A stretch of 64,000 nt of DNA from Candidatus Poribacteria bacterium (GTDB lineage Bacteria > Poribacteria > WGA-4E > JAJDTR01): contig JAPPIK010000014.1 in assembly GCA_028820655.1 (NCBI GenBank), forward strand, positions 1 to 64,000. The letters run 5' to 3'. Positions 6,728 through 51,445 of the stretch are shown in pieces. A program made the translations under genes and the position numbers. The notes under the pieces are model-generated. The model was given only the letters and a program-made list of their open reading frames with translations. It did no database searches and was not told where the DNA came from. The first letter of the stretch is position 1. Every line of letters starts with the position of its first letter.

Positions 6728-7057
6728 ATGGCTAGAGATGCATTGGGCTTAGTTGAAACGAGAGGTTTGGTGGGGAGTGTGGAAGCTGCGGACGCGATGG
6801 TAAAAGCCGCAAATGTGCAACTCATTGGATACGAGAAAATTGGCGGCGGATATGTGACCGTAATGGTACGCGGCGATGTTGGGGCGGTAAAAGCAGCGAC
6901 CGATGTCGGAGCGGAAGCGGCCGGAAAAGTCGGAGAGGTTGTTTCAGTGCACGTGATTCCGAGGCCGCATGCGGAAGTTGAATCGATTCTACATTCGATC
7001 ACTGGGAATGGGCCTGTATTGCCCCTCGGTCTAAGTGACGAAGATTCTTCAAGCTGA
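6728..7057 (+). CDS. BMC-H microcompartment shell protein (EutM/PduA/CcmK type)
   Basis: 109 residues with a single BMC domain ([22 protein letters not shown] to [11 protein letters not shown]), the hexagonal tile that forms the facets of protein-bound organelles. The pore-lining loop reads KIGGGYVTV, which suits small polar or charged metabolites. After the BMC domain there is a short tail (about residues 88-109) ending in an acidic [15 protein letters not shown] sits upstream of ATG 6728. It is 18 bp from pduL, so the two are co-transcribed. Only one BMC-H copy is present here; a functional shell would also need a vertex protein (found at 47964) and usually more tiles. Confidence 0.95.
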
Positions 7058-7075
7058 ATCTAGGGCCCATCACGC

Positions 7076-7783
7076 ATGCGCGACCAGGCGTTAATCGAAA
7101 CAATTACCCGCAAGGTGCTAGAGCAGATTGGCGGCGATCAACCGTGCAGCGGTTGCGCATTACGGGTTTGCGATGCGGGCGAGCGAGCCTGCGACGCCGC
7201 GATCTCTCAGAGCAAAATCCCTGTCGGCGTTTCAGCGAGACATGCACATGTTTCCCAGGAGCACTTGGACATTCTTTACGGTAGGGGACATCAATTAACC
7301 ACTCTTGCACCACTATATCAACCAGGCGCGTTTGCGGCACAGGAGACTTTGACCGTAGTTGGACGGAGAATGCGGTCAATTGAAGGCGTGCGAATCTTGG
7401 GACCATCAAGAGACTACACGCAGGTCGAACTTGCTCGTACCGATGCTATTCGATTGGGATTGGATCCACCAATTCGCGATTCAGGCGACCTCGCGGGCTC
7501 AGAACCGATAAGCCTGATTGGACCGGCAGGATCGTTATACCTGAACGAGGGCGCAATATTGGCGACCCGGCACATTCATATGACACCTCAGGTTGCTAAG
7601 TCTTTCGGTGTAGAAGATGGTGATTCACTAAAGGTGCGAATTCCGGGCAATCGTGCTTTAACACTTGAGAACATTCGACCGAAGATTTCTCCCTCCTATG
7701 TTTTGCAGATGCATTTGGACACCGACGATTCAAACGCCGCGGGACTACGCGGCGGCGAAGCTGTCGAGTTGCTGCGAGACTAA
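7076..7783 (+). CDS. pduL: PduL-type phosphate acyltransferase with Cys-rich N-terminus
   Basis: PduL exchanges CoA and phosphate on an acyl group (acyl-CoA to acyl-phosphate), recycling CoA inside microcompartments. Both halves of the PduL fold are present: the first with SARHAHVS (zinc-binding His pair) and GAFAAQETLTVVG, the second with TRHIHMTPQVAKSFGVEDGD. The 235 residues exceed the usual ~210 because of an N-terminal extension. An amphipathic helix (ALIETITRKVLEQIGG, residues 5-20) looks like an encapsulation peptide. It is followed by a linker with Cys24, Cys27, Cys32 and Cys39 (CX2CX4CX6C). ATG 7076 lies 18 bp after the shell gene. Confidence 0.93.
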   Translation: MRDQALIETITRKVLEQIGGDQPCSGCALRVCDAGERACDAAISQSKIPVGVSARHAHVSQEHLDILYGRGHQLTTLAPLYQPGAFAAQETLTVVGRRMRSIEGVRILGPSRDYTQVELARTDAIRLGLDPPIRDSGDLAGSEPISLIGPAGSLYLNEGAILATRHIHMTPQVAKSFGVEDGDSLKVRIPGNRALTLENIRPKISPSYVLQMHLDTDDSNAAGLRGGEAVELLRD

Positions 7784-8666
7784 ACGAATTCTTGGCGCCG
7801 CGATGCGGGATTGCTAACATTGCCGTTGCGTTGAAAGTGCCGTAGTCACGGTTTCGTTGCAGAAACTTGGCATTTGATCTGTCTACAAGCCGAACAGATA
7901 TTGCTAGCGGAATCAGACGCAATTCAAGTGAATATCGGTAATCCGCCATATTAGCTGGATTGTTGTACCTCGGAAGGTTTTTTTCTGATAGCGATGATTG
8001 AAGCTTCTTGGCAAAATTCATAATGTCAAGCAATTTGAATGAGAGTGAGGAGACTATTTCTAACTGCCCTTGAGTGTCCGGAAACTCCTCTAAACAAGAC
8101 CATTCCACCCAATCTGATCTTCGCAAAGAGTGTATTTGGATGAAAGGACGAATTGGCAATCTTTTAACTTCCACGCAATCTTTCAAGACGTTGCGGTTAT
8201 TTGGCATTAAAATTGTAAGGTAAAATAGCATCGCTCTCATGCTTTGAGCGGCGGGATATGTTCAAATTGGAGTAGTGTGGTAGGCAATTCGAGTCTCTGA
8301 TTGCCGCATCGGTTATAATCGACTACCCCCCGGCTGTCTAGGGTGGGTGGAAATTGATGCAGCAATAGCTGCACTGCCATTGTGAGAATTAGTTCGGTCT
8401 GGACTTGATGTTTTTCATGCGTAAGCCTAATTACGAATCTAAAATAGAGATCTACCGTCGGACATTGCATGAAATGGGAAAAGGTATCAGATTTACGACA
8501 GATTGTACCACTATTACTACAAGTTGGAAGTGGAGCCACGGCGGACCGCATCGGATCTAAAACTAGAAGCTGCCTGACAACTGTTTATTGCGGCTATGGC
8601 ACGTAAGATTATCGCACTTGAGTAAATTGATGAGTATTTGGATTTACGTCAGTTTTAGGAGAGATT
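7784..8666. other. Long intergenic stretch with two weak minus-strand frames
   Basis: About 880 bp with no recognised gene. On the minus strand an open frame 8237-8551 (104 codons) overlaps the next one, 7596-8240 (214 codons), by ATGA. However, the second frame runs 188 bp into the 3' end of pduL on the opposite strand, and neither translation shows a domain or a good ribosome-binding site. Either this is a decayed gene or the frames are chance. No tRNA and no terminator is apparent. Confidence 0.4.
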
Positions 8667-10253
8667 ATGATGAGCGCCCGAATTAACCCTTTGCATCTGT
8701 TGGTACTGATAGGTTGCCTATTTATGCTTTCCGCACCGACGGCAATCGTGGCTGACTATGACTATAGTCAGTATTCCGATCGGTTAAGCCGTGAACATCG
8801 GGCAGGTAACGATGTCGATGAGTGGATAGAACGAGGTAATGCAACAATTAACGCTAGTCCAGTCTTTGAAGAAGGGGCTCGCTTAACGGCTTGGGCAAGC
8901 AAGTACATTCAGGAGGATGATTACGAATTTGCCATAGCGAGTGCGGTTTACTTATTTGAAATTCCGCCTCGAGCGCAGTACATTGAAATCCTGGTGCGCT
9001 ACCGGGGAGAACCCAACGAACCCTACATTGATGATTACGAATCAATTGCGGGTCGCGTTTGGATTCGAAACACCAAGCGTGCGTATACACGGCGCGGTTA
9101 TGATGACAAACATGCCGATGAAACTCGCTACGGTGATACGTTTGTGCTGAGATCCCGGCGGCGATCGGAGACCATTAAGATTCCCGCTGCGGGCCATGTT
9201 GATGATGGTTTACTTGAGGTGCATATTGTTGCCCAAGACGGCGAGCAGCTTGACGTAGAGTACGTCGATGTCGTAACTTACCGAAAACAACGCCATATTC
9301 ATAGGTATCACAGATATGCAAGGAGCTATCAATGGCGCCCGTGGCACCACTACACCTACCTGTATTTTTACGACGGTCCTTGCTACTATGCAACAGATCA
9401 CGGCTACTATATACGATGGAGCTACCCCCTCTATGATCGTCACTACTTCGCGGTGCGATATTCATACGGCAATTACCTACATCGTTACTACACCTATCAT
9501 CCGACGTTCTGTTATAGGTCATATTCGAACCCGAGGTACGTTTATTCAGGGCCCAAGTCTTCGGTAAAGAAGAGGCGGACACAACTGAATCAATGGAGCC
9601 AGGAGCACGAGAATATCCGCCGCCAATACAGTAGGAGCCGACTCTCAGTAGCACGCAGAGCGAATAAGCAGGTAAATGTCCAACCCAGAGTCCGGGCAGT
9701 TATTGAGAAGCATCGTGACCGACAGCCGGTCTTGAACGATCACGTAGAACAGAACGCAACCATTTCGACCAAGCGTGAGCGCACGAGTTATCGTGCAAGA
9801 TCAAACACGCTGAGGGATCGTCTCAACACTATGGGCTTGAACCGAAGATCATCCGTCAAGAGAAGCTCTGTGGACGCGCCGAACGACAGAGTCTATTCTC
9901 GAGGTTCCGCTCATGAAGACGGTAAAAGAAATAGGCGCATTCGCTCAAATTCTGAACGGCGCACACAGCTGTACAATCGTTCGAAATCCTACTCAGGCAG
10001 AACTCGTGTATCATCTCCGCGCGAGTCCAATTTGCGTTCAGGTTCAAAGCAGAAGCGAGCTGAGAAATCGACACCTTCACGTACTCGGTCAATCAGATCG
10101 ACCTCTCCTTCGCAGCCATCACGTTCAAGAGTATCGGCGGCTCCCAGCCGGCAGTCGTCAAGTACAAGTAGCAATGACGACGACGATCAGAATAATCGTT
10201 CTAGTGATCGCACTCGCAATACGGAACGCACATCGAGACGACGAAGCCGATAA
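8667..10253 (+). CDS. Secreted Tyr/His-rich protein with long basic Arg/Ser tail
   Basis: 528 residues, no known family recognised. A signal peptide (about 1-29, ending near IVADYDYS) leads into a globular, beta-rich part to about residue 200. Next comes a strikingly Tyr/His/Arg-rich block at about 210-295 (YHRYARSYQWRPWHHYTYLY and repeats of similar composition). The last ~230 residues are a low-complexity, very basic Arg/Ser/Asn tail ending in RRRSR. ATG 8667 (or 8670) follows TAGGAGAG. It may bind polyanions such as nucleic acid or acidic polysaccharide outside the cytoplasm, or carry redox or cross-linking tyrosines; this is inference from composition only. Confidence 0.75.
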   Translation: MMSARINPLHLLVLIGCLFMLSAPTAIVADYDYSQYSDRLSREHRAGNDVDEWIERGNATINASPVFEEGARLTAWASKYIQEDDYEFAIASAVYLFEIPPRAQYIEILVRYRGEPNEPYIDDYESIAGRVWIRNTKRAYTRRGYDDKHADETRYGDTFVLRSRRRSETIKIPAAGHVDDGLLEVHIVAQDGEQLDVEYVDVVTYRKQRHIHRYHRYARSYQWRPWHHYTYLYFYDGPCYYATDHGYYIRWSYPLYDRHYFAVRYSYGNYLHRYYTYHPTFCYRSYSNPRYVYSGPKSSVKKRRTQLNQWSQEHENIRRQYSRSRLSVARRANKQVNVQPRVRAVIEKHRDRQPVLNDHVEQNATISTKRERTSYRARSNTLRDRLNTMGLNRRSSVKRSSVDAPNDRVYSRGSAHEDGKRNRRIRSNSERRTQLYNRSKSYSGRTRVSSPRESNLRSGSKQKRAEKSTPSRTRSIRSTSPSQPSRSRVSAAPSRQSSSTSSNDDDDQNNRSSDRTRNTERTSRRRSR

Positions 10254-10318
10254 CATAGGGCCGAAACTTAATCGAATGTGCTAGTGAAGGTTCTATCAGG
10301 TCGTTTGAAGATTTTTTA

Positions 10319-10348
10319 TTGACAGCGGATTAAGACTTTCGGTATTAT
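10319..10348 (+). promoter_or_regulatory. Sigma70-type promoter before the DUF5683-like gene
   Basis: A perfect TTGACA at 10319-10324 and TATTAT at 10343-10348 with an 18-base spacer, 60 bases before the chosen start of the next gene. Confidence 0.6.
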
Positions 10349-10408
10349 TGTATAGTCGCGAAGGTTGCAGCAGGAAAGTTCAACAGTAGGTTGTTGGGTG
10401 GCTGGCAA

Positions 10409-10927
10409 GTGAAGATTCTGACAATTGTACTGTTTTTTTTGGCTTTCGCGCAGGTTTGCTTTTCCCAAACTGACGAACTCCGCCTTATATCTCCAATTGG
10501 CTCTGTCGTTCGATCAGCATTTGTACCTGGCTGGGGGCAATTTCATTCGCGCAGTCCAATTCGGGGTACACTGTCGGTGATAGGAGTGGGGGCATGCCTT
10601 TCCGGAGCGCTAGTCGCACATAACTCCTTCCTGAATATCTATAATAATCAGTACATTCCTGCCGCAACTATCGACCCGAAATCCGAGGAGGCTGCTGCAC
10701 AGTATAAGCGCTCGAACGAGCGGTATAAGGTTAGGCAGTTTTTCTTGTATGCTGCAATTGGTGTATGGGCATATAGTGTTATCGATTCCTATGTTGGTGC
10801 CAAGTTTTATAATGCAAAGATAAGGGTTGATTCGCTCATAGAGGAAGCTAAAGAGATCGAGAAATTAGGTGTGAGTGTAGATGCAACGCCGACTAAAATT
10901 GCTCTGATTCTGAATAAATCATTTTAA
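10409..10927 (+). CDS. DUF5683-like small membrane protein
   Basis: About 172 residues with a signal peptide (VKILTIVLFFLAFAQVCFSQ), then the motif RSAFVPGWGQFHSRSPIRGT, which resembles the PGWGQ.Y....KG signature of DUF5683 proteins, a membrane segment near residues 50-65, a charged Lys/Glu/Arg stretch and a second membrane helix (FFLYAAIGVWAYSVIDSYVGA). These proteins are found in diderm envelopes but their role is unknown. GTG 10409 is chosen because it begins the signal peptide directly; an upstream in-frame TTG at 10391 would add six residues. Confidence 0.65.
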   Translation: MKILTIVLFFLAFAQVCFSQTDELRLISPIGSVVRSAFVPGWGQFHSRSPIRGTLSVIGVGACLSGALVAHNSFLNIYNNQYIPAATIDPKSEEAAAQYKRSNERYKVRQFFLYAAIGVWAYSVIDSYVGAKFYNAKIRVDSLIEEAKEIEKLGVSVDATPTKIALILNKSF

Positions 10928-11066
10928 GAGTAGCTCATTTGAAGATGACGTGGCCTCAGCGCGGTCTTGGAAAATCTGGCAGTCGAGAGAGTGAGATAGA
11001 CTAATCGGTATAAATTGCCGAGGCCCAATGTGTTCGTATATGTAAGTCTTGCGGAGGTTGTCTGTG

Positions 11067-11630
11067 ATGTTCAGGAAATTTGCCAACGTAGTTTGTTCAT
11101 TACTCACCGTTGTCGTGGCATTAAGCCTTTTGAGTTGCGGCGATGTGGAGAAGGTCGGTGCGCCAAGATCTCAAGAATTAGCTGAAATTGAGGCAGTGTT
11201 GAGGGCGTGGCGTACCGGGTATGAAACCGAAGATGTAGATGCTTACATCAATGTCTTTTGGGCCGACGGGTTTCGTTATGTATCGGATATGGGGACACCT
11301 GACGATACCACTGATGATGTGAAGTTTGATGATATTCGTGAAGAGAGAGAGTCAGCAATTCGGGTATTCTCGCTGTACCAAGACATTGAGATAGAGCTCG
11401 ACGAACCGCCTGAGGTGGAATTAAACACAGAACGTAACAGGGCTGAAGTAAGAGTCCATTACAGAATCCAGGGGTTCGTGGCGGACGGCGTATCTCTTGA
11501 AGGCGGATTCACAGGCTGGTATGCGGAAGGGGACAATTTGTTTATCTTTGAACTTAGAGATGGCGAATGGCGCATAACAGAGTGGATTGACGAAGCATTT
11601 AGCAAAGAACAGATTGAAGCGGCTCGCTAG
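11067..11630 (+). CDS. Lipoprotein with NTF2/SnoaL-like domain
   Basis: 187 residues. The signal peptide ends in a lipobox (LSLLSCGD), so the mature protein should carry a lipid on Cys and sit on a membrane face. The rest fits the cone-shaped NTF2-like fold: EIEAVLRAWRTGYETEDVDAYI at the first helix and the strands GFTGWYAEGDNLFIFEL and GEWRITEWID at the end. The ligand is unknown. ATG 11067 is preferred over an in-frame start at 11049, because GGAGG at 11053-11057 lies nine bases before it. Confidence 0.75.
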   Translation: MFRKFANVVCSLLTVVVALSLLSCGDVEKVGAPRSQELAEIEAVLRAWRTGYETEDVDAYINVFWADGFRYVSDMGTPDDTTDDVKFDDIREERESAIRVFSLYQDIEIELDEPPEVELNTERNRAEVRVHYRIQGFVADGVSLEGGFTGWYAEGDNLFIFELRDGEWRITEWIDEAFSKEQIEAAR

Positions 11631-11804
11631 TTTAGGGATTTCCACACGGCGGCATCCAATTCTCTATTTATCCCGACGAACGCGCCTATGACCGAGGATT
11701 GGAGTTGCGCCTTTGCGGCCCGTCTTGATCTATGAATTGAAGTAGAGACAACGAAAGGAGCAACGGTTCTTCGCTCGTTAACGGAGGAAGGAATCACAGA
11801 TTCG

Positions 11805-13889
11805 ATGCCTCAAAAGGAGGTCCACTTACGCGATTACCTTGCGGTAATACAGAAGTACGATTTCATTATATGTTTGTGCTTCTTGTTGATTGTAGGTACT
11901 GCTCTTGTAATTAGTTTACACCTGCCCAAAACTTACGTAGCGTCTGCGCTGCTAGAGTTTAACCAACCGGCATCAAGCCCACCAATACCATCCGGTAATG
12001 TTGTTCAAAGCGTCCTATCTGGCGGAGTTGACCGCAGCGAAATGGAAACTGTCGGTCAACGATTTCTGTCGGAGTCTATGATAATGGCGGCGATTGAACA
12101 ACTCGAGGAATCGGAAATCGGCGGTGTTTCCCATTTGCCCCCCGTCGGTAAAATAAGACGCAATCTCAAATCAAAGAGTCGTACCGATTCTCACAACATT
12201 GAACTTTCGCTGTCACTTTCTGAAGGGGAAGGCGGCGAGCGTAATGCGGCTCTCCTGATTAATCATTTAGTTGCTGAGATGCAAGAACACCGCCGAATGC
12301 AGAACTCCGGCAAATTGAAGCAACGCCAACAATTACTACGCGAAACAATGAAAGAATTGCGGAAGGAGGTGGAGAATAAAGAAGACCAAGCGCTTGAGTT
12401 TGTTCGACAGAAAGGTGGTCCTGGAACCTGGCGAGAAAAACTCTCTAGTCTTTTCCTACGACGGGCATCTCTACGAGGGAACTTGGAACAACTCGAGTTG
12501 GGAATTGGTTCGTCTGAGAAGGAATTGGAGCATCTTAGGGAAGAAATCAAGAACCACCCCGAATATACAAAACTCACAGAGACAGTGGGTACTAATCCAA
12601 TCTGGTTGTCTCAAATGGAGAGGCTTATTGCTCTTGAGGTCCAAAGAACCGGGCTAATTGCTTCTGGAACAGGTGAGAACGCTCCGGGGATGCAGTCTAT
12701 CGAAGCGCAAATTAAGGACATTGAGGACAGATTGTCCACCTCCATATCTAATGAAGCTATTACTTCGGTGGCTAACGGTGTATCTCCACTCTATAATGCT
12801 GTTCAGGAGCGATTGATAAATCTACGAACGAGCATCATTCGAGCACAACACAACCTTCCGTTAGTCAAGGCTCAGCTGGAGAAGGTTGAAAGCGAGTTGA
12901 CGCAACTACTTGGTGCCATACCTGAGAATGAGATGCTGATTGAAAAGATGGAGCGGGAGATTGAATTTAGGCACGAGTTGACAAAAGAGACCTTCGCGCG
13001 GATTCTGCAAACCGACATTTTAATAAACGAATCGGATCCGTCACATGCTACATCAGGAGCCGGTAATTCCATAGGAGGACTTGAAGTCGTTGACGGTGCG
13101 GTGCCTCGCAAGATTCCCACCAGTCCCAGAGTCAAGGCAATTGTAGCAATCGCCGGCATCGTCGGCTTGGCGCTCGGGGTTTCTGTTGCCCTTCTCATGG
13201 AGTATTTTAGCACTACCTATAGCTCATTAGAGGAGGTAGAATCCGACTTGGACACAGCCCATTTGGGGCGCGCTCCCGAACCGAATGGTACAAGCCTAGG
13301 TGACCACAGTATATCGGAAGGATTTCAGGAAATCGCAGCAAACATCAATCTTTCAAATCCCGGCATTAACAAGCAGGTGATAATGTTTGCCGGATGCGAT
13401 CACGACGACCATGTATCTGAGATTACGGCCAATCTGGGCGTCACACTTGCTTTGGCGAAAACCCCTGTCTTAGTGGTTGACTGCAATCTACTTGCACAAA
13501 AGCAGCGTGAGACATTCGGTATAGCATCTGATACCATTCGACAACCTACACAGATCGAGACGTTTACGGATTGGCAGCAGGCGATTCAGAAGACTGAATT
13601 TGCGCATGTTGATTTATTCAGTATCAGTAGTGTTGCGTCTACACCGGTTGAATTCCTTGACTCTTCTCGCCTTCAAGTACTCTTCGAACAGTTCCGTGAA
13701 CATTATGAGCTTGTGTTGATTGACGCGCCGCCGCTTCTTGCTTCGGCAGATGGACTGGCTCTAGGTACTCACGCTGATGCCATTGTATTGATTTTCAATC
13801 TCTCCACGACTTCACGTCAATCATTGAGGACAGCCCGCGATAGAGTGACTCATGCCAATCTCTCTCTTCATGGGTTCATAACGACCTAG
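11805..13889 (+). CDS. Wzz/BY-kinase-like polysaccharide co-polymerase with defective P-loop
   Basis: 694 residues. The N-terminal part is a Wzz-type chain-length determinant: TM1 at about 19-38, then a long extracytoplasmic coiled coil (about 170-400). TM2 lies at about 445-465, preceded by the Pro-containing region PRKIPTSPRVKA typical of this class. The C-terminal ~200 residues have the BY-kinase/MinD fold: Walker A' (VLVVDCNL) and Walker B (VLIDAPPLLASADGL) are clear. The Walker A position reads MFAGCDHDDHVSEITANLG and lacks the Gly-Lys-Ser/Thr needed to hold ATP phosphates. There is no C-terminal tyrosine cluster. It may regulate capsule or exopolysaccharide length without kinase activity. 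No glycosyltransferase neighbours are in the window. Confidence 0.85.
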   Translation: MPQKEVHLRDYLAVIQKYDFIICLCFLLIVGTALVISLHLPKTYVASALLEFNQPASSPPIPSGNVVQSVLSGGVDRSEMETVGQRFLSESMIMAAIEQLEESEIGGVSHLPPVGKIRRNLKSKSRTDSHNIELSLSLSEGEGGERNAALLINHLVAEMQEHRRMQNSGKLKQRQQLLRETMKELRKEVENKEDQALEFVRQKGGPGTWREKLSSLFLRRASLRGNLEQLELGIGSSEKELEHLREEIKNHPEYTKLTETVGTNPIWLSQMERLIALEVQRTGLIASGTGENAPGMQSIEAQIKDIEDRLSTSISNEAITSVANGVSPLYNAVQERLINLRTSIIRAQHNLPLVKAQLEKVESELTQLLGAIPENEMLIEKMEREIEFRHELTKETFARILQTDILINESDPSHATSGAGNSIGGLEVVDGAVPRKIPTSPRVKAIVAIAGIVGLALGVSVALLMEYFSTTYSSLEEVESDLDTAHLGRAPEPNGTSLGDHSISEGFQEIAANINLSNPGINKQVIMFAGCDHDDHVSEITANLGVTLALAKTPVLVVDCNLLAQKQRETFGIASDTIRQPTQIETFTDWQQAIQKTEFAHVDLFSISSVASTPVEFLDSSRLQVLFEQFREHYELVLIDAPPLLASADGLALGTHADAIVLIFNLSTTSRQSLRTARDRVTHANLSLHGFITT

Positions 13890-14111
13890 CCAACGCTTCG
13901 AGGTTAACTCCGCGCACATATCACTCACCGGATTCCGACGGCCCCGCCACATTAATGAGCACTCTAATTGTAGACTTCCCTTAGTGTTGGAAAGTAGTTG
14001 TTTCTGATTGGATGCAATCTGCGAGAAAGGCATGAATTTTAATCTCATCATTGAGTGTTCTTCGCGCAAATTCGAAGTAAACAGTTAAACTAGATTTAGG
14101 AAAAAAAAGTC

Positions 14112-14140
14112 TTGACAGATATTACCAGAAGTGATATCTT
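14112..14140 (+). promoter_or_regulatory. Strong sigma70 promoter upstream of outer-membrane protein cluster
   Basis: TTGACA at 14112-14117 and TATCTT at 14135-14140 with a 17-base spacer, preceded by an A-rich run (UP-like) at about 14100-14108. Transcription starting near 14147 would give a leader of about 300 nt before the first open frame at 14452. Confidence 0.65.
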
Positions 14141-14346
14141 AAAGGCTCATTTGCTGAAAACTACCTGTTTTCCGCGTAATGAGACAGTGCAGAGTCTTAC
14201 GGCAGCCAGCTTTTAGATGGCCGCGAGAATTAACAGATCCGTCGTGATTTCGCGGAATTCGTAGTTAACAAATAGTGAAGTTACCGGACTTCTGTTTTCC
14301 CGAAATCGTGCAGAATTGATTTGATACTATCGAGACCGGGATATTG

Positions 14347-18521: not shown

Positions 18522-18535
18522 ACTCTGTTGATTCT

Positions 18536-18769: not shown

Positions 18770-19777
18770 ATGAAGCGGTTGGGTTTAGTTTTAGCAATTG
18801 CGATTCTTTCCACGATGGGTAGCATTATCACCGTTGCCCAAGAAGCAGAAGTGTCCGGTGGGGGTGGTACTGTTCGCGGAACCATCGAAGACACTACAAC
18901 TGCGCGAGCCCCCATTCAGGGCGTGCAAGTGATTATCAAGGATGTCTCTGGTAATGAATTCACGGCGGAGACTGATGACGCCGGAGAATACGAAATTACA
19001 AATCTACCTACCGGCAGATATTTCATTAGTATCTATAAAGATGGTTACGGCGACAGAGTGGGCAAGCCGGTAAACGTGGTTGCCGGCGGAGACAGGTATT
19101 TTCCGCTCAAAATGACAAAGAAAGACAACATAGTTACCTTCTTTCAAAAGATGGGATTTGTCTTTTGGCCGTTGGCGCTGTGCTCTATTACAGCATTGAC
19201 ATTTATTATCGAAAGATTCTTTACGTTTGCCCGTGCGAGATCGAAAATCGGTGCAGAGCAATTCATGGCTAGTATTACGGATTCGCTGCGCAATGAAAAC
19301 ATAATGGAAGCTGTCTCTACATGCGAGGATGCCGGCGGACCGCTTGCCAACGTGTTGAAAGCTGGGCTGTTAAGGTACAGTCAGGCGCAAATTGAAGAAC
19401 GCGAAATCACCAAAGACGAGATTCAGGAATCCATTGAGGAAGCGGAATTGCTTGAGACTCCGGAATTGGAAAAGAATCTTCCGGTTCTTGGTACGATCGC
19501 GGTCGTCTCACCTCTCTTCGGTCTTCTTGGAACCGTTACTGGTATGATTAACGCCTTTACAACAATTGCATTGGAAGGTACCGGTGATCCGCAACAGTTG
19601 GCGGGAGGTATTTCTCAGGCGTTGTTAACAACAGCGGCTGGTCTCACCATCGCTATACCTTGCCTAATCTTCTATCAATTATTTGATAGTTGGGTCAACA
19701 GGTATGTTCTTGAGATTGGCCAGGTTTCAACGGAAATCGTCAATCAGCTTGTTCTTGGCCAAGAAAACGCCGCATAA
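18770..19777 (+). CDS. exbB: ExbB/TolQ-type proton channel fused to a periplasmic carboxypeptidase-regulatory domain
   Basis: 335 residues. Signal peptide 1-24, then a carboxypeptidase-regulatory/CnaB-like beta-sandwich (about 32-108), then the MotA/TolQ/ExbB domain. This has TM1 at about 127-148 (GFVFWPLALCSITALTFIIE), a cytoplasmic helical region, and TM2/TM3 at about 240-320 with the signature LGTIAVVSPLFGLLGTVTGM and ALLTTAAGLTIAIPCLIFYQ. ExbB uses the proton gradient to drive TonB-type or other envelope motors. The N-terminal domain is unusual; classical ExbB is ~240 residues with no such domain. AAAGGAGG precedes ATG 18770. exbD genes follow at once. Confidence 0.93.
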   Translation: MKRLGLVLAIAILSTMGSIITVAQEAEVSGGGGTVRGTIEDTTTARAPIQGVQVIIKDVSGNEFTAETDDAGEYEITNLPTGRYFISIYKDGYGDRVGKPVNVVAGGDRYFPLKMTKKDNIVTFFQKMGFVFWPLALCSITALTFIIERFFTFARARSKIGAEQFMASITDSLRNENIMEAVSTCEDAGGPLANVLKAGLLRYSQAQIEEREITKDEIQESIEEAELLETPELEKNLPVLGTIAVVSPLFGLLGTVTGMINAFTTIALEGTGDPQQLAGGISQALLTTAAGLTIAIPCLIFYQLFDSWVNRYVLEIGQVSTEIVNQLVLGQENAA

Positions 19778-19792
19778 AATTGGGCTTATTGG

Positions 19793-44490: not shown

Positions 44491-47262
44491 TTACCGTTCG
44501 CTTCGGGTGCGCCCGCTGGCGCGTTTTCGCGCTCGATTCAATGCATCAAGCATTTTCTCTCGCTCGGGTGGTGTCTGGCGCCCATCTGGTTCATCGGGGT
44601 CACCCTGCTCTGCTGGAGAAGGTGATGCCGCCGCGAATTGATCGACAGTGCGGTCTTCTCGAAATGTGCGTGCTGCCTTGGGTTCAGTCTTTTTCCGTCC
44701 GTGTCTCATTGAGATTAATCCGGTGCGTCGTTCCAAGATTTCAACAAGCAGGAGGATGAGTGCTGCAATCAGTAGCCACGGCTTGAGTTCAAGCAGCCGG
44801 GGCTCGCGCGGCAAGTCGTTCCAGATCGCACCAAAGTTGATTCGTGTTTTCCCGCCAGTAGCGTGCGCAAGGCGTTCCATCGTTTCACGACCGGATTCAG
44901 CCGTTGCGGGCCTAAATTCGGGGGAATAAGGCAAGCAAACCGGGGGCAGCGAGAAATTCCCTGCTCCCGGTACTTCAACCGTAGCCAGAACAGTTTCGCT
45001 GCCGTGAATCGGAATGTCTACTGCGAGGGTGTCTGCCGATGCCCAAGACAGGTTGAATTCCTCCACCGTAGGCTTTTGCCCAACAATTCCCCGGAGTAGG
45101 GTTGCGCGGGGAGGTTCTCTGAAAGGGTCACCTTGTCGTTCCGGGTCGAGGTGGAGTTCCACCACATTGATCCCATTCTTGACCTCTTGAGTAAGCAACA
45201 TCTCTCTTGGCATATCGCCCGAATCGCCGGCGGTCCAACGGACCAAGCTGGTTAGGAAATCTCCGACGCCGTTCCAACCAGCGATAGCGCCCGTATAATC
45301 CCCGTCCACTTCACCGGTAAAACAGAGAACTCGCCCAATCTCCGCCTGCCACGCCGCTACAACCGGAGCCTTGTACTCATCCTCTGTCACCGCTGCGAGA
45401 TTTGCATCAGGGCGAATGTAGCAGAGGTTATAGCCGCCAATCGGATAGGGTATCTGATACTGGTTCCCGGTCAGGGTGACCATGCCGCCTGTTGTCCGAA
45501 TTTCAACGGGTTCTTCGACGAACGTGCTTCGCGCCACTACGAATGTATCTTGTGCAAACAGGCGGGGAAGTTCCTCGGCGTTCTGTGTAAATAAGCATCG
45601 TCCCTCGCCTCGACGCGCGATATCGCGAAGCAGTTCGGCATCCACGTCGGTGGCGGTCCCCAATCCTACGACGCTCACGGTGATGTTGGCACTTCGACAC
45701 TTCTCGAGCAATTCCTTGTATTTACCGGGTTCCTCTGAATCGGCGGCGTCAGCGAATAGGATTATATGTCGAGTGCCCGCCTCCGCATTTAACAACATAT
45801 TGGATGCGGCAAAAAGCGCTTCGTAGACAAAGATGCCGCCACCCCCGGTATCAATCCGTAGGATTCTGCTCCGAACCTGTGCGCTATTCTCCACACTTGA
45901 AAGGTCCGCTATGATGTGTGGCGAACTGTCGACTGCAATGACGCCAAACTCGTCCATCGGTGATAGCATATCCAGCACTTCGGCAGTAGCAAGGTTGGCG
46001 AGGCGCATCTTCGTTCTGCCTCCACTCACGGGCATTGACATACTCCCGGACCTATCCATGGCTACCACGATGGCAAGTGATAGTTTTCGGTGTTCACGCC
46101 TCAATTCCATAGAGACTGGCATTATCGGTTCAAGCGGCGATTTGAAATAACCGCCCTGCCCGAAGGCCTGTTCTCCACCAGTCATCATGAAACCAGCCCC
46201 GGTTTCTTTGACCCAGACAGCGAGGTTTTCCATCCCGTACAAACCAATCTTGTCTGCGGGCACGTTTTCTACGAGCACGGCGGAATACCCGGACAGTGCG
46301 TCCAGAGACCATCCATTTTCCGTTGGAAGAGCTGTTTCGACGTCCAATCCGCCCTCTTGAAGGACACGTGCAAAACTAGAATTGGGCGAAGTAGTAACAT
46401 GCAAAACCGGGCGCGGGCCATGAATACCCACCAAGACTTTTGCCGTGTTGTTTTCGGGAACCGGATCCGTCTCCGTTCCCTTGATTCTCACTGTGTATTG
46501 GTGAGTTCCCGCTTGGGTTGCTTTGTCGCGAAAGACGAGGCGACTCAGACCGGACGCAACCGTTCGCCGGCCCGATGCGAGACGATGATTTCCGCGACTG
46601 AATTCGAATGAAACCTCGTCTCGAATCGGCGAATGGATCCATGCAGACAGCATAAACGATTCCCCGGGAGCCGCCGCATTTGGTGCGTCTACTTGTGTGA
46701 TGGCGATGTCACTTGTCGAGTCTCTTCGTATTAGACGATGGTCAATCGCAATACCTCGCGCGGCGGCTTGAGCTGCAGCCGCCGATGGGTTTTTTCCGGT
46801 CCAGAGCGCGTCGGAGAGCAGCAGTATCCTTCCGGGAGAGCCTTGAGGAATCAGGGCGAGAGCCGTCTCGATCGCCCCGTTTAGGTCAGAGGCGTCATCG
46901 TGGACATCTCCGACGAATCCGGCGAATTTACCGCTTTGAGGTGGTTGTTCAATGGCGGGGGTTCGACCGAAGGACACAACCGCTAGATTTGAATCACTCC
47001 CCTGAAAGGTTTGGATCAGATTGATTGCTTCCCGGTGTCTTGATTCGCTGTCGAGAGGCATTGACCGGCTTCTGTCTGCCACGACTACAACTGTGCCCGC
47101 CTGCGTGCGTAATCTTAGGGAGAATCCGCACATAGCCAACAGAATTAAAGATAACATTGCAAAACGCAGGATCAACAGAAGACGAGACGAAAGCTGCCAC
47201 ACACGCACCGATATGATGATCGGAACAAACAATATGAGCCAAATTGGATGGAGGACTTCCAT
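44491..47262 (-). CDS. Large membrane protein with two VWA domains and a GATase1-like domain
   Basis: 923 residues. Two N-terminal membrane helices (about 4-20 and 28-50) lead into VWA domain 1 (about 57-185, MIDAS DRSRS). A beta-sandwich follows (about 200-285), then a class-I glutamine-amidotransferase-like segment (about 285-390; LENVPADKIGLYGMENLAVW-like and TGGEQAFGQGGY, without catalytic Cys). VWA domain 2 is at about 395-570 (MIDAS DRSGSMSMP). Then come a beta region and a C-terminal membrane helix (KPWLLIAALILLLVEIL) followed by a charged tail. This layout fits BatA-like or gliding/aerotolerance-type envelope proteins; the exact role is unknown. Confidence 0.85.
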   Translation of the reverse strand: MEVLHPIWLILFVPIIISVRVWQLSSRLLLILRFAMLSLILLAMCGFSLRLRTQAGTVVVVADRSRSMPLDSESRHREAINLIQTFQGSDSNLAVVSFGRTPAIEQPPQSGKFAGFVGDVHDDASDLNGAIETALALIPQGSPGRILLLSDALWTGKNPSAAAAQAAARGIAIDHRLIRRDSTSDIAITQVDAPNAAAPGESFMLSAWIHSPIRDEVSFEFSRGNHRLASGRRTVASGLSRLVFRDKATQAGTHQYTVRIKGTETDPVPENNTAKVLVGIHGPRPVLHVTTSPNSSFARVLQEGGLDVETALPTENGWSLDALSGYSAVLVENVPADKIGLYGMENLAVWVKETGAGFMMTGGEQAFGQGGYFKSPLEPIMPVSMELRREHRKLSLAIVVAMDRSGSMSMPVSGGRTKMRLANLATAEVLDMLSPMDEFGVIAVDSSPHIIADLSSVENSAQVRSRILRIDTGGGGIFVYEALFAASNMLLNAEAGTRHIILFADAADSEEPGKYKELLEKCRSANITVSVVGLGTATDVDAELLRDIARRGEGRCLFTQNAEELPRLFAQDTFVVARSTFVEEPVEIRTTGGMVTLTGNQYQIPYPIGGYNLCYIRPDANLAAVTEDEYKAPVVAAWQAEIGRVLCFTGEVDGDYTGAIAGWNGVGDFLTSLVRWTAGDSGDMPREMLLTQEVKNGINVVELHLDPERQGDPFREPPRATLLRGIVGQKPTVEEFNLSWASADTLAVDIPIHGSETVLATVEVPGAGNFSLPPVCLPYSPEFRPATAESGRETMERLAHATGGKTRINFGAIWNDLPREPRLLELKPWLLIAALILLLVEILERRTGLISMRHGRKKTEPKAARTFREDRTVDQFAAASPSPAEQGDPDEPDGRQTPPEREKMLDALNRARKRASGRTRSER

Positions 47263-47963
47263 GATTAGCCTTCTAATGTTGATTTAAGTAACGCCAAATT
47301 CGTTACTCTGCGATATGGGGGATTGATGTTAGAAAGGCTTTTTCTGGCTAGATTCAAACCCAGAATCTGAGGTCGATGAAGATTACCGAGGTGTCTAAAT
47401 ACCATGGGCGACCGGTGATCGATTAATTGGAGTTTCTGGATACTCCGCCAACTCTAATTTATATCATTATGGGAATCCTGCGTCAAGGTAGACAACCGCC
47501 CAGCGATTCAATTGGTCATAACATGATAATTCCCTCCGTGAAGGTGCGATCTTCCTATGATTGCGCAGAGCAAGCTGCGTAAAACGGAGTGAGAAGGGCG
47601 TTCTCCGGTCAAAGTTGGCAGGGTAAACGATTTCAATTCCACGCACTATTCATCTATTCAAACACCGATGTCGGAAGAATTTAGCGACACGTTCCAAGAA
47701 GCCATGCAAACGGTTGTCCAAGCGAAATGAGGTTACAAACGACTCCAGACATAACGAAAAATGAAGCATGCGTGCGAGATGGTTGCCTGACGCAAGAACC
47801 ATCCACTTCATTAAGCGTTCGTGTTTTGGAACGGGCGTGTTCACGGTGTCGACACTGACAAAAAACTTGACTTTTTAATGGCTTGAGTTTACTATAAACA
47901 CCATTGCTGGACGATCCAAAAGATGTTTCTAAGAAGATAATCTAGAACAGAAGGATTCATTGG
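47263..47963. other. Intergenic stretch before the BMC-P operon
   Basis: About 700 bp between the divergent VWA gene and the BMC-P gene. Only the promoter at 47867-47895 is convincing. No tRNA can be folded, and no coding frame has a recognisable domain. Confidence 0.5.
47867..47895 (+). promoter_or_regulatory. Sigma70-type promoter of the BMC-P/two-component operon
   Basis: TTGACT at 47867-47872 and TACTAT at 47890-47895 with a 17-base spacer, about 69 bases before the BMC-P start codon. Confidence 0.65.
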
Positions 47964-48251
47964 ATGACGCTTGGGAAAGTCACAGGAACCATCGTTGCTA
48001 CCAAAAAAGACGCGAAGCTTGTCGGCAGTAAGTTGATGATTATTCAAGACGTAGACTTGGATGGCAATCTACTCAAGACGTACAATGCGGCGGTAGATGC
48101 TGTTGGCGCCGGCATTGGCGAGTTGGTGCTGGTTGCAACGGGAAGTTCGGCGCGACAAACAACGGTTACAAGAGACAAGCCGGTTGATGCCGTCATCATG
48201 GCAATCGTTGATTTCGTTGAAGTGCATGGCGAGATTCGGTATCAGAAGTGA
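47964..48251 (+). CDS. BMC-P microcompartment vertex protein (EutN/CcmL type)
   Basis: 95 residues forming the EutN/CcmL beta-barrel (LGKVTGTIVATKKDAKLVGS, KLMIIQDVDLDGN, VDAVGAGIGELVLVATGSSA, VDAVIMAIVDFVEV). Pentamers of this protein cap the vertices of icosahedral microcompartments. The BMC-H tile and PduL lie about 41 kb upstream; here the gene is followed by a sensor kinase 45 bp later. It is the only vertex gene in the window, so the two loci probably serve the same organelle. Confidence 0.95.
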   Translation: MTLGKVTGTIVATKKDAKLVGSKLMIIQDVDLDGNLLKTYNAAVDAVGAGIGELVLVATGSSARQTTVTRDKPVDAVIMAIVDFVEVHGEIRYQK

Positions 48252-48296
48252 TTGTGAGACTGTACTTTTCCGGGAAACGCATGAGGTCTTGTTTTA

Positions 48297-50081
48297 GTGA
48301 TACAGGGTGTATCTCCTCAGTCTCCTGATGTGAATCGAGAACTCCCATTCAAGGTTGAACTAATCAAGCAGATTGCTTGGCTTGCGCGGTTGCGTTGGAT
48401 TGCGATCGGTGGAGTATTTGTCACCGTCGGAATTGCATGGTGGTTAGGCGTAATCAATCAACCTCTTCCGCTGTATCTCATCGCCGTTTTCATGGTGCTC
48501 TACAATTTCGAGCCGCAACTATACTCGAAACATGTGAGCAAGAAACGGTTGGTGTCGATCAAACGCCATGCTTGTACACACATTCTGCTTGATTTATTTT
48601 CCTTAACAGCGTTAATTCATTTCAGCGGAGGTGTAGAAAACCCGTTTATATTTTACTTCGTGTTCCACCTTGTTATCGCAAGCATCATTCTGTCCAAAAA
48701 AGTCAGTTACATCCTCGCCACTCTCAACACCGCTCTACTTAGTTCCGTTATTTTCTTGGAATATTTCGGGATCCTACCACATCATCATCTGAACAATTTC
48801 CTTCCGATGACTCTCTGGCAACACCCCATTTATGTGGCGAGTGTGTTGTTCGTCTTCACGAGCACTCTGTTTTTCTCTGTTTATTTGGCTACGACAATAA
48901 CGGATACTGCAAGGTCGCGCGAGGAAGAAACGCGAGATCTAAAGGAAAATCTTGAGGAGAAAGTACTGGAATTGGAAGCTGCGCGGAAGGACGTTCTTTT
49001 TGAGCGAAACAAACTCAAGTCGATAATTGAATGTATGCACGAGGGCGTAGTCTTTGTTGATGAAAGAAATCAAGTAGCGCTCTCGAATAAAGCCGCCCAA
49101 CAGATTCAAGAGGAACAATCTGAATCTGCAGTCGCTACGGTACCCGCTTCGGGATCAGTGGACTCGCAACAACTATCGAATAATTACAATCTTCTGTCAC
49201 AGATGGTGCGTGATTTGTCGGAAGGTAGTGAAATAATTGAGCAAAAGAGTGTTCGGATAAAGGACAGGCATTTTGAGAACACCGTCGCAGCGGTCCGCGA
49301 CGCTGAAGAAGGGCATTTGGGAACCGTGCTGGTGTCGCGTGATGTGACAGATCGAAAACGGATGGAACAACAGTTAATCTTCTCTGAAAAAATGGCGGCA
49401 ATTGGTGAAGTTGCCGCAGGCGTTGCACACGAGATAAATAACCCGCTTGATGGACTGATAAACTGCATTCTTCGAATCAAGCGAGATCCGGAAAATACCC
49501 ACCAAACGAAAGAGTATTTGGACCTCATGGAAGAAGCCTTGCGACGTATTGAGTCAACGGTCACACAGCTTCTGGACTTCTCGCGACACCATGAACTTAG
49601 TCTAGCCTCAATCTCATTGAATGAAGTTGTGGATGAAGTCACCGGACTGATTGAATATAGCGCCCAAGAAAAAGGAATCAAAATTGAAAAGCGATTCGAT
49701 TCAGATCTCGCAACAATCCTCGGGGACAAACATTTGCTTGAACAGGTTGTACTGAATCTGGCATTAAATGCTGTTGCAGCGATGCCTGATGGAGGCACGC
49801 TAATTTTAAAAACAGGCCCCGTAGAACCCGATGTGTTCGAGAGGGCGCAAATGGTCTACGTGCGGGTTACAGATACGGGAATCGGTATTCCCCATGCAAT
49901 TCAGGATCGGATTTTCGACCCGTTTTATACCACAAAAATATCAGAAAAAGGAACGGGGCTTGGCCTTTCTGTGTCTGATAGGATTGTAAGGCAGCACGAA
50001 GGAACTCTTGAATTCGAGAGCAAACTTGGTCAAGGTTCGACCTTTAAGGTGAACTTGCCAGTCGCGACAGAGCGGGTTTGA
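48297..50081 (+). CDS. Membrane sensor histidine kinase with PAS domain
   Basis: 594 residues from GTG 48297. Six membrane helices (about 35-200) form an integral sensor without a large periplasmic loop. A coiled coil (about 205-240) and a PAS-like domain (about 240-350) follow. HisKA has its phosphate acceptor at His378 (GVAHEINNPLDG). HATPase_c has the N box NLALNAVAAMPDGG, G1 VTDTGIGIP and G2 KGTGLGLSVSDRIV. It belongs to the NtrB/AtoS group that pairs with NtrC-like regulators, and the next gene (4-bp gap, stop overlapping an alternative start) is its regulator. The signal is unknown. Confidence 0.95.
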   Translation: MIQGVSPQSPDVNRELPFKVELIKQIAWLARLRWIAIGGVFVTVGIAWWLGVINQPLPLYLIAVFMVLYNFEPQLYSKHVSKKRLVSIKRHACTHILLDLFSLTALIHFSGGVENPFIFYFVFHLVIASIILSKKVSYILATLNTALLSSVIFLEYFGILPHHHLNNFLPMTLWQHPIYVASVLFVFTSTLFFSVYLATTITDTARSREEETRDLKENLEEKVLELEAARKDVLFERNKLKSIIECMHEGVVFVDERNQVALSNKAAQQIQEEQSESAVATVPASGSVDSQQLSNNYNLLSQMVRDLSEGSEIIEQKSVRIKDRHFENTVAAVRDAEEGHLGTVLVSRDVTDRKRMEQQLIFSEKMAAIGEVAAGVAHEINNPLDGLINCILRIKRDPENTHQTKEYLDLMEEALRRIESTVTQLLDFSRHHELSLASISLNEVVDEVTGLIEYSAQEKGIKIEKRFDSDLATILGDKHLLEQVVLNLALNAVAAMPDGGTLILKTGPVEPDVFERAQMVYVRVTDTGIGIPHAIQDRIFDPFYTTKISEKGTGLGLSVSDRIVRQHEGTLEFESKLGQGSTFKVNLPVATERV

Positions 50082-50083
50082 AC

Positions 50084-51445
50084 ATGAAGGTACTTGTTGT
50101 CGACGACGAAAAAATTAAACGGATTACACTCCGAGATGACCTTCGGGAAGCGAACTACGACGCAATCGCGGTCGAATCTCCGGCTACCGGACTGCAGTTG
50201 CTGGAAAATGAGCATTTTGACGTTCTGGTATCTGACTTGCGAATGCCTCGAATGCACGGGATCGATTTTCTAAAGCGAGTTAAGAAAGAGCAACCGCATG
50301 TAACGGTTATAATTATGACCGCCTATGCCACGGTCGAAACCGCAGTCGAAGCCATGAAATTCGGCGCCCACAACTACATCAAGAAGCCGTTTTCCAGCGA
50401 AGAACTGGTTGCCATGCTGGACAAGCTGAAGAGACTGCATCAAGAGAGCGGTCAAGCAGCGAGCGGGGACATCATGCTGTCTTCCAACAACACTGGCAGA
50501 CTTACACCGCATCAGAATATCGTTGGAAGGAGTCAGCAGATTCAAGAGGTTCTAGTCGCCCTCGACACCGTGGCTGAATCCAATAGCAATGTATTGATAT
50601 ACGGTGAACGGGGCGTCGGTAAAGCGTTGCTCGCAAAGTCAATTCATTCGAATAGCCGGCGCAGATACCAGCCCTATGTGCGTGTAAACTGCTCAAAGCA
50701 ATCGTCCGCCGCGTTGCACGATGACATGTTTGGGAACGAAATGATCGCCGACGGTCGGCAGCCTGGCAGACTTGAACTCTCTCATGGCGGCACTCTCTTT
50801 TTGGCTGATATAGAAAATTTGCCGTACGAGATACAGGTCAAGCTTCTTCAGGTGCTTGAAGATGGAGAATTTGTGAATAATGAATGCACAGATAGCACCG
50901 GATTGGACGTACGCATGATCGCCGCAACTACGGTGAATCTTCGGGAGAAAGTCAGAATAGGCGAATTCCGAGAAGATCTGTACTATCGATTAAATGTCGT
51001 CCCTCTATTTTTGCCGCCCCTCCGGGAGCGAATGGAAGACATATCGCTTCTTATCAGTCATTTCGTAGAATTATTCTCCCCCCGTCGAGATACTTATTTA
51101 GTTCCGGAGGCTATCGATTTACTCGCAGCGTATACATGGCCCGGAAATGTAAGCGAACTCGAAAATCTAATCGAACGTCTTGTTACGATGGGCGGTGGCC
51201 GGCCGATCACTGTAGAAGATATTCCAATTGAGCTGAAAGTTCCCACTCCCGTCAATATAGATGACACCTTGTCCGGAACCTCGTTTCGTGAGATTGTGCA
51301 GTCGACGGAACGCGAGCTGATTGCTTGGGCGATGAGGAAAACCAAGGGGAACAAGACTCAATCAGCGAAGCTGCTCAACATGAAGCCTTCCACCTTTCGA
51401 GATGCGCTTGCCAAATATATCGATGAAATCGGGTGGGAAGCATGA
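50084..51445 (+). CDS. NtrC-family response regulator lacking the sigma54 contact motif
   Basis: 453 residues: receiver (1-120, acceptor Asp51 in VLVSDLRMP, DDE acidic pocket, Thr in IIMTAY, Lys in IKKPF), AAA+ domain (about 145-375), and a Fis-type HTH (about 410-450, TKGNKTQSAKLLNMKPSTFRDAL). Walker A reads GERGVGKALLAK. The GAFTGA loop that contacts sigma54 is missing: where family members have HEKGAFTGA there is GNEMIADGRQPGR. Walker B reads GGTLFLADIENL, with Ala-Asp in place of Asp-Glu. Arg fingers (FREDLYYRLNV) remain. It probably acts as a DNA-binding regulator without sigma54 activation. ATG 50084 lies two bases after the kinase stop. Confidence 0.92.
   Translation: MKVLVVDDEKIKRITLRDDLREANYDAIAVESPATGLQLLENEHFDVLVSDLRMPRMHGIDFLKRVKKEQPHVTVIIMTAYATVETAVEAMKFGAHNYIKKPFSSEELVAMLDKLKRLHQESGQAASGDIMLSSNNTGRLTPHQNIVGRSQQIQEVLVALDTVAESNSNVLIYGERGVGKALLAKSIHSNSRRRYQPYVRVNCSKQSSAALHDDMFGNEMIADGRQPGRLELSHGGTLFLADIENLPYEIQVKLLQVLEDGEFVNNECTDSTGLDVRMIAATTVNLREKVRIGEFREDLYYRLNVVPLFLPPLRERMEDISLLISHFVELFSPRRDTYLVPEAIDLLAAYTWPGNVSELENLIERLVTMGGGRPITVEDIPIELKVPTPVNIDDTLSGTSFREIVQSTERELIAWAMRKTKGNKTQSAKLLNMKPSTFRDALAKYIDEIGWEA

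What the first reader, a model, noticed from the sequence alone, without database searches (positions are those of the whole stretch)
6728..51445. Microcompartment genes split over 41 kb, with a two-component system at one half
The BMC-H tile and PduL (6728-7783) and the BMC-P vertex protein (47964-48251) are in different transcription units, yet each is the only copy in the window. Established knowledge: BMC loci are normally compact and carry their signature enzymes alongside; regulators next to them are usually AraC, GntR or two-component types. Inference: this organism builds a shell from scattered parts, with the vertex protein (which closes the shell) controlled together with the kinase/regulator, and the core enzymes elsewhere. 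No aldehyde dehydrogenase or signature lyase is in the window.
Basis: partly seen in the sequence, partly recalled or inferred. Interest (0 to 1): 0.72.

Follow-up and report, generated by a model that had tools for sequence, protein, structure and literature searches.

The report
Scattered microcompartment genes in sponge bacteria
A bacterium of the sponge-associated phylum Poribacteria encodes the protein shell and core enzymes of one tiny metabolic organelle in four separate places on its chromosome; this was already reported for the phylum, and new here is that it looks like a broken-up sugar-aldehyde organelle whose original first enzyme was lost in this group and perhaps replaced.

Summary
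The genes are real. The window is from a Ca. Poribacteria genome with 2 BMC-H, 3 BMC-P, 1 PduL and a microcompartment-type aldehyde dehydrogenase, in four loci: BMC-H1+PduL; BMC-P1; BMC-P2+P3; BMC-H2+ALDH. No compact locus exists, also not in six one-contig relatives. The split itself is known (Kamke 2014; 'FRAG' type, Sutter 2021).

Added here: the three vertex proteins match one-to-one those of a compact aldolase-type (PVM-like) locus in Latescibacterota. Deep Poribacteria still carry aldolase-BMC-H-ALDH. The window's order has lost that aldolase and has a rhamnulose-phosphate-aldolase-like protein instead (71 of 73 order genomes, 0 of 12 outside), which directly follows BMC-P1 in one family. 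ALDH and PduL keep encapsulation-peptide-like N-termini; tested BMC genes are under purifying selection.

The kinase/regulator beside BMC-P1 is present in only 17 of 42 relatives, and its regulator lacks the sigma-54 contact loop and Walker B acid, so 'vertex controlled with the kinase' is not general.

Best reading: a dispersed PVM-derived metabolosome oxidising a short aldehyde (probably lactaldehyde) to acyl-CoA and acyl-phosphate. Substrate and the new aldolase's role are inferred.

The parts
6613..6641 (+). sigma-70-like promoter TTGAAT-17-TATACT (extended -10) upstream of BMC-H1/PduL
   Evidence: score alone is not above chance (75 of 500 shuffles as high), but the hexamers are kept in some relatives (L166, L170, L103) with a changed spacer
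6728..7057 (+). BMC-H1, hexameric shell tile
   Evidence: PF00936 105 bits; nearest solved relatives are BMC-H proteins of the HO, EUT and PDU types; dN/dS 0.10 against G001
7076..7783 (+). PduL phosphotransacylase; residues 1-20 resemble an encapsulation peptide, followed by a C-x2-C-x4-C-x6-C linker
   Evidence: PF06130 222 bits; aligns to solved PduL 5cuo with both His motifs; only PduL in the genome; dN/dS 0.035
47867..47895 (+). sigma-70-like promoter TTGACT-17-TACTAT upstream of BMC-P1
   Evidence: not above chance alone (83 of 500 shuffles), but several relatives have TTGA..-17-TATAAT or a close form 87-127 bases before the same gene
47964..48251 (+). BMC-P1, pentameric vertex protein
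   Evidence: PF03319 98 bits; nearest solved relative is the BMC-P of the HO shell (5v74); groups with Latescibacterota P1 (83/97); dN/dS 0.007
48297..50081 (+). histidine kinase (PilS-like membrane part, PAS, HisKA, HATPase); lineage-specific neighbour, probably not an organelle component
50078..51445 (+). NtrC-type response regulator without GAFTGA loop and Walker B acid; lineage-specific neighbour
51476..52084 (+). 5-formyltetrahydrofolate cyclo-ligase; the more constant downstream neighbour of BMC-P1 in the phylum
   Evidence: PF01812 121 bits; linkage

Best explanation
The window holds two of four pieces of one dispersed metabolosome of Ca. Poribacteria. SHOWN: the organelle gene set of this genome is 2 BMC-H, 3 BMC-P, PduL and an acylating-type aldehyde dehydrogenase, in four loci (BMC-H1+PduL; BMC-P1; BMC-P2+P3; BMC-H2+ALDH), and this set and split recur throughout the order, including closed chromosomes. 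The three vertex proteins are one-to-one counterparts of those in a compact aldolase-type (PVM-like) locus of Latescibacterota. Two deep-branching Poribacteria still have aldolase, BMC-H and ALDH side by side; the window's order lacks that aldolase. INFERRED: the pieces assemble into one shell; ALDH and PduL are drawn inside by N-terminal helices; ALDH turns a short aldehyde, most likely L-lactaldehyde from deoxysugar phosphates, into acyl-CoA with NAD+, and PduL makes acyl-phosphate and frees CoA. Each piece is transcribed from its own housekeeping-type promoter, so stoichiometry does not depend on an operon. In this order a divergent rhamnulose-phosphate-aldolase-like protein may have taken over as aldehyde source. 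The kinase/regulator next to BMC-P1 is a lineage-specific neighbour.
For: Gene set and place. Constancy: exactly 3 BMC-P in 54 of 59, 2 BMC-H in 55 of 59 and 1 PduL in 57 of 59 order genomes; in six one-contig genomes the loci are at least about 300 kb apart, except the two BMC-H loci of G012, 25 kb apart. Pairings kept: BMC-H2+ALDH in 25 of 26 loci read (the other cut by a contig end), BMC-P2+P3 in all 26. Orthology: POR_P3+LAT_P3 100/98, POR_P2+LAT_P2 98/67, POR_P1+LAT_P1 83/97; compact Latescibacterota locus PduL-H-H-P1-ALDH-P2-P3-aldolase, acetate kinase nearby in some. Aldolase beside BMC-H and ALDH in G065 and G068, with a C-terminal encapsulation-peptide-like helix. EP-like N-termini on ALDH, PduL and the flavoprotein-fold neighbour. 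dN/dS 0.007-0.13. ALDH nearest solved relatives are BMC-type acylating dehydrogenases. Transcription of the BMC-H/PduL pair and immunolabelling of the BMC-H protein in Poribacteria are published (PMC5087111).
Against: The helix amphipathicity test was only suggestive (ALDH better than all but 0.5-12% of background N-termini, PduL 9-36%). Published immunolabelling showed ring-shaped, membrane-associated BMC-H signal rather than icosahedra (PMC5087111). The substrate rests on ancestry: the canonical aldolase is gone in this order. PduL is not adjacent to BMC-H in G009. The BMC-H tree is unresolved. Promoter matches in the window are not above chance by score. Acetate kinase and an alcohol dehydrogenase for NAD+ recycling were not searched for.
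Confidence: 0.7

Rival explanations
1. A complete conventional BMC operon exists elsewhere and the window genes are spare or satellite copies.
For: Axen et al. 2014 raised this for Poribacteria because the single-cell genomes were incomplete (PMC4207490).
Against: Genome-wide searches find no further BMC-H or BMC-P gene in this genome; six one-contig relatives also have no locus that combines BMC-H and BMC-P; PduL is single-copy.
Confidence: 0.03
2. The genes are decaying leftovers of a lost organelle.
For: The signature aldolase is missing and the EP-bearing flavoprotein-fold gene next to PduL is missing from its usual place in the window's genus.
Against: Intact frames, dN/dS 0.007-0.13, near-invariant gene set over 59 genomes, published strong transcription of the BMC-H gene (PMC5087111).
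Confidence: 0.06
3. A B12-dependent 1,2-propanediol microcompartment, as proposed by Jahn et al. 2016.
For: PduL and an ALDH are present; the authors report PduP, PduW and PduQ homologues (PMC5087111).
Against: No diol dehydratase large subunit (PF02286) in 13 genomes including G000 and six one-contig relatives, but the search had no positive control. The ancestral neighbour of BMC-H and ALDH is a class II aldolase, not a dehydratase.
Confidence: 0.12
4. The shell proteins do not close into polyhedra but form sheets or patches at the membrane.
For: Ring-shaped BMC-H signal associated with the cell membrane in Poribacteria (PMC5087111); separate loci could allow separate use.
Against: Three vertex (pentamer) paralogues are kept under purifying selection throughout the order, which is hard to explain without closed vertices.
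Confidence: 0.15
5. The vertex protein is deliberately co-regulated with the kinase/regulator pair so that shell closure responds to a signal.
For: BMC-P1, kinase and regulator are tightly spaced on one strand here (46 bp, then overlapping), and a different kinase/NtrC-type pair precedes BMC-P2/P3 in most genomes read. Kamke et al. 2014 noted two-component genes in three of four poribacterial BMC groups (PMC3909097).
Against: The BMC-P1 pair is absent in 24 of 42 genomes examined; there the cyclo-ligase (20 genomes) or the aldolase-like gene (3 genomes) follows instead. The regulator lacks GAFTGA and the Walker B acid. No sigma-54-like site recurs before the shell genes and no shared upstream word over the loci.
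Confidence: 0.12

Closest known systems
Poribacterial BMC groups A-D (Kamke et al. 2014, PMC3909097; group A studied by Jahn et al. 2016, PMC5087111)
   Same: Same phylum, same scatter of BMC-H and BMC-P genes, BMC-H+PduL pair, two-component genes beside BMC genes; the authors already suggested a scattered system.
   Different: They had incomplete single-cell genomes and left open loss of function. Here the set is shown to be constant and scattered in one-contig genomes, the ALDH locus is placed, and the origin from an aldolase-type locus is traced.
FRAG BMC types (Sutter et al. 2021, PMC8217296)
   Same: Shell genes in several genomic places, three BMC-P genes, occasional nearby ALDH, no known signature enzyme, found in candidate phyla.
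   Different: That text does not name Poribacteria; assignment to FRAG1-7 needs their shell-protein colour scheme, which was not available here.
PVM / PVM-like BMC (fucose and rhamnose aldolase type; PMC4207490, PMC8217296)
   Same: Three BMC-P, PduL and ALDH; [quoted passage not shown] one-to-one vertex orthologues of a compact PVM-like locus in Latescibacterota; class II aldolase beside BMC-H and ALDH in deep Poribacteria.
   Different: No single locus, no canonical EP-bearing class II aldolase in the window's order, no acetate kinase beside the genes that were read.
[quoted passage not shown] 2014, PMC4207490)
   Same: Each locus alone lacks either BMC-H or BMC-P.
   Different: Strict satellite loci require a main locus elsewhere; here there is none.
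NtrC-type regulators without GAFTGA (Caulobacter, Rhodobacter; PMC10274813)
   Same: Deletion in loop L1 that removes the sigma-54 contact, with the receiver domain kept.
   Different: The poribacterial one also lost the Walker B acid and belongs to an unrelated phylum; its targets are unknown.

Membership tests
Bacterial microcompartment (metabolosome) | BMC-H and BMC-P shell proteins in the genome | tested here: met
   2 BMC-H, 3 BMC-P over the family cut-offs
Bacterial microcompartment (metabolosome) | acylating-type ALDH and phosphotransacylase with encapsulation peptides | tested here: inconclusive
   ALDH and PduL are present and BMC-type; N-terminal helices look like encapsulation peptides, but amphipathicity alone is only suggestive
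Bacterial microcompartment (metabolosome) | closed polyhedral organelle with encapsulated enzymes | not testable with these tools
   needs microscopy or in vitro assembly
PVM / PVM-like BMC | one compact locus with BMC-H, BMC-P, PduL and ALDH | tested here: not met
   four loci
PVM / PVM-like BMC | class II aldolase as signature enzyme | tested here: not met
   no hit with the Latescibacterota aldolase in 59 genomes (no in-search positive control); PF00596 finds only a divergent protein in G000, plus a separate ordinary class II aldolase-family protein without an EP in G004 and G012, while the Latescibacterota controls ring; canonical aldolase is present in deep Poribacteria
PVM / PVM-like BMC | shell proteins orthologous to the compact type | tested here: met
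   BMC-P tree; BMC-H tree unresolved
FRAG BMC (Sutter 2021) | shell genes in several genomic places, a BMC-P triplet, no recognised signature enzyme | tested here: met
   definition from PMC8217296
FRAG BMC (Sutter 2021) | shell-protein subtype composition of FRAG1-7 | not tested
   reference HMMs are not held here
Satellite locus (Axen 2014) | a non-satellite main BMC locus in the same genome | tested here: not met
PDU (1,2-propanediol) BMC | B12-dependent diol dehydratase | tested here: inconclusive
   no PF02286 match in 13 genomes, but no positive control rang
sigma-54 activator (regulator at 50078-51445) | GAFTGA loop and intact Walker motifs | tested here: not met
   loop deleted and Walker B acid changed in the four lineages aligned; the BMC-P2/P3 regulator keeps both, as GAYTGA or a close variant

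The most novel reading that the evidence does not exclude
In this order of Poribacteria the encapsulated class II aldolase of an ancestral PVM-type microcompartment was replaced by a new, order-specific rhamnulose-1-phosphate-aldolase-like protein (own copy G000:C37:16084-17136, minus strand). It has an altered metal site (HxH changed to HxQ) and a conserved C-terminal (L/V/I)YNYP or NLFNY tail that might be a new targeting signal, and it feeds a shell whose parts are expressed from four independent promoters.
Probability: 0.3. Interest if true: 0.68.

Novelty: new variant of a known kind. Interest (0 to 1): 0.5.

Why it matters
Scattered ('FRAG') microcompartments are one of the open cases of the BMC field: no signature enzyme and no function assigned. 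Kamke 2014 and Axen 2014 could not tell whether the poribacterial organelle was incomplete, scattered or dead. One-contig genomes settle that it is scattered, constant and conserved. The comparison with Latescibacterota and deep Poribacteria gives it an ancestry (aldolase type), a point of loss of the signature enzyme, and a named candidate for the replacement that can be tested in vitro. It would also show that a shell with several paralogous parts can be maintained without an operon.

Tried and rejected
Sigma-54 promoters upstream of the BMC genes: scanned 350 bases before the BMC-H and BMC-P genes in the loci then held, no recurring strong site. Shared operator over the four loci: no 8-mer reached 20% of sequences in two or more upstream groups. 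Remnant of the EP-flavoprotein gene (c15) between PduL and the next gene in the window: none by tblastn. Canonical class II aldolase in the order: none of the PVM type; the ordinary PF00596 hits of G012 and G004 are separate proteins without an EP, the G012 one next to an acireductone-type dioxygenase and an enolase-phosphatase-like frame, so probably MtnB of methionine salvage (naming is my own knowledge). Diol dehydratase: no match but no positive control. BMC-H phylogeny: too little signal. Hydrophobic-moment test of encapsulation peptides: only suggestive. Laying the whole genome for a scan of all N-termini was not available. Caulobacter-type precedent for GAFTGA-less NtrC proteins was read to judge the regulator.

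Full report
Observation. The window is contig C15, bases 1-64000, of a 5.88 Mb, 95% complete genome. PduL matches Ca. Poribacteria records at up to 92%. In the same-genus genome G001, BMC-P1 and BMC-H1 lie 41.6 kb apart on one contig, so the 41 kb spacing is not a join.

Whole-genome inventory. The genome has two BMC-H genes (C15:6740 and C44:24034), three BMC-P genes (C15:47964, C15:382206, C15:382508) and one PduL. BMC-P2 and P3 are tandem, preceded by a histidine kinase and an NtrC-type regulator and followed by a rhomboid protease. BMC-H2 is followed by an aldehyde dehydrogenase whose nearest solved relative is 4c3s and which passes the NCBIfam model PRK15398.

Constancy. In 59 genomes of the order, 54 have exactly three BMC-P, 55 exactly two BMC-H and 57 one PduL. 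Six of them are single contigs. In five of these the four loci are at least about 300 kb apart; in G012 the two BMC-H loci are 25 kb apart and the other two far away. There is no conventional locus to be a satellite of. The scatter was reported by Kamke et al. 2014 from partial single-cell genomes (PMC3909097). Axen et al. 2014 called these loci satellite-like and asked whether a core locus was unsequenced (PMC4207490). Sutter et al. 2021 define FRAG BMCs with shell genes in up to six places (PMC8217296). The finding itself is therefore not new; the closed genomes answer the question left open.

Conserved pairings. BMC-H1+PduL, BMC-P2+P3 and BMC-H2+ALDH recur over families. The kinase/regulator at BMC-P1 does not: 17 of 42 order genomes have it, one has a regulator-like gene alone, and 24 have neither. 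In 20 of those 24, and in two deep Poribacteria, 5-FTHF cyclo-ligase directly follows BMC-P1; the genomes with the pair mostly have the same ligase after the regulator (counted by me from its output). The simplest reading is an insertion of the pair between two older neighbours. The regulator lacks the GAFTGA loop and the Walker B acid in all four lineages aligned, while the one at BMC-P2/P3 keeps GAYTGA, GAYTDA or GAFTDA and the Walker B acids. NtrC proteins without GAFTGA act on sigma-70 promoters in Caulobacter and Rhodobacter (PMC10274813). Sigma-70-like hexamers stand before BMC-P1 and BMC-H1. Their score alone is not above chance, but hexamers recur in several relatives with changed spacers. 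No sigma-54 site and no common upstream word links the loci.

Origin. PduL relatives outside the phylum come mostly from Latescibacterota and genomes filed as Gemmatimonadota. There the homologues form one compact locus, typically PduL-H-H-P1-ALDH-P2-P3-class II aldolase, with acetate kinase nearby in some. A maximum-likelihood tree puts each poribacterial vertex protein with its counterpart: P3 100/98, P2 98/67, P1 83/97. The aldolase of that locus ends in an encapsulation-peptide-like helix, as in PVM-type organelles. The BMC-H tree is unresolved.

Loss and possible replacement of the signature enzyme. The canonical aldolase is present in deep-branching Poribacteria. In G065 (L350) and G068 (L352) it stands beside BMC-H and ALDH on one strand, and in G065 it carries a C-terminal encapsulation-peptide-like helix; G069 has a copy cut by a contig end. 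The window's order lacks it. Instead 71 of 73 order genomes, and 0 of 12 genomes of the phylum outside the order, have a single-copy protein of about 350 residues. Its best NCBIfam models are rhamnulose-1-phosphate aldolases, 49-52 bits over most of the model but far below the cut-off. It keeps the catalytic Glu and two of the three metal-binding His motifs; the HxH is HxQ in all 48 loci where the motif could be read (loci overlap, so fewer genomes). In the three genomes of family f3 it starts 9-12 bases after BMC-P1. Elsewhere it is unlinked. This makes it the best candidate for a replacement signature enzyme, not a proven one.

Mechanism. Inferred route: an aldolase outside or inside the shell releases lactaldehyde; ALDH (EP-like N-terminus MAEINPDQIEEIVSQVISNLRSEG) makes acyl-CoA with NAD+; PduL (EP-like N-terminus MRDQALIETITRKVLEQIGG) makes acyl-phosphate and recycles CoA; a kinase outside would make ATP. 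The ALDH and PduL pieces and the shell genes are shown; substrate, encapsulation and assembly are inferred. Purifying selection supports function (dN/dS 0.007 for BMC-P1 to 0.13 for BMC-P2), as do published transcription and immunolabelling (PMC5087111). A third EP-bearing protein follows PduL in 62 of 65 poribacterial PduL loci but not in the window's genus. Its model shows an N-terminal helix, a low-confidence linker and a flavoprotein fold like PPC decarboxylase and UbiX, and weak matches to the microcompartment families TIGR02536 and PduM.

Verdict. 'A shell from scattered parts' is right but already known. Control of the vertex by the kinase is not a general feature. What is added is the settled scatter in closed genomes, the PVM-type ancestry, and the loss and possible replacement of the signature aldolase.

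Noticed in passing
window 7145-7192 (PduL residues 24-39): Between the encapsulation-peptide-like helix and the catalytic domain PduL has C-x2-C-x4-C-x6-C, kept in the order genomes aligned and in deep-branching G065; Latescibacterota PduL has a different Cys cluster before its helix. Possibly a metal or Fe-S site in a PduL linker.
   Followed up: no
window 7784-8666: The EP-bearing flavoprotein-fold gene that follows PduL in 62 of 65 poribacterial PduL loci is missing here and in the two same-genus records (L072, L166); no remnant by tblastn.
   Followed up: partly
G000:C37:16084-17136 (L184, L316): Order-specific aldolase-like protein with HxH to HxQ change and a conserved C-terminal YNYP tail; in families f2 and f3 a capsule-synthesis-like (PGA_cap) gene lies just downstream.
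   Followed up: partly
G067 contigs C421 (L346) and C173 (L347): P1 and a cut P2 at the end of one contig, a cut P2 and P3 at the end of another: this hot-spring lineage probably has a P1-P2-P3 triplet, and it has two BMC-H in tandem near ALDH (L348), so it is less dispersed.
   Followed up: partly
window 48297-51445: NtrC-type regulator with deleted GAFTGA loop and changed Walker B in several lineages, paired with a PilS-like kinase; targets unknown.
   Followed up: partly
window 56393-63562: EF-G followed by frames whose order and sizes suggest EF-Tu and the S10 ribosomal protein cluster; BMC-P1, the kinase pair and the folate gene lie a few kb upstream (only EF-G was checked by Pfam).
   Followed up: no
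window 6097-6582 and 18770-19777: Two proteins with a similar carboxypeptidase-regulatory-like domain flank the BMC-H1 region; the second is fused to a MotA/TolQ/ExbB channel, matching the 'BTP' protein of the published BMC-A region (PMC5087111).
   Followed up: no
window 271-1050: IS3-type transposase (integrase core domain) near the start of the contig.
   Followed up: no
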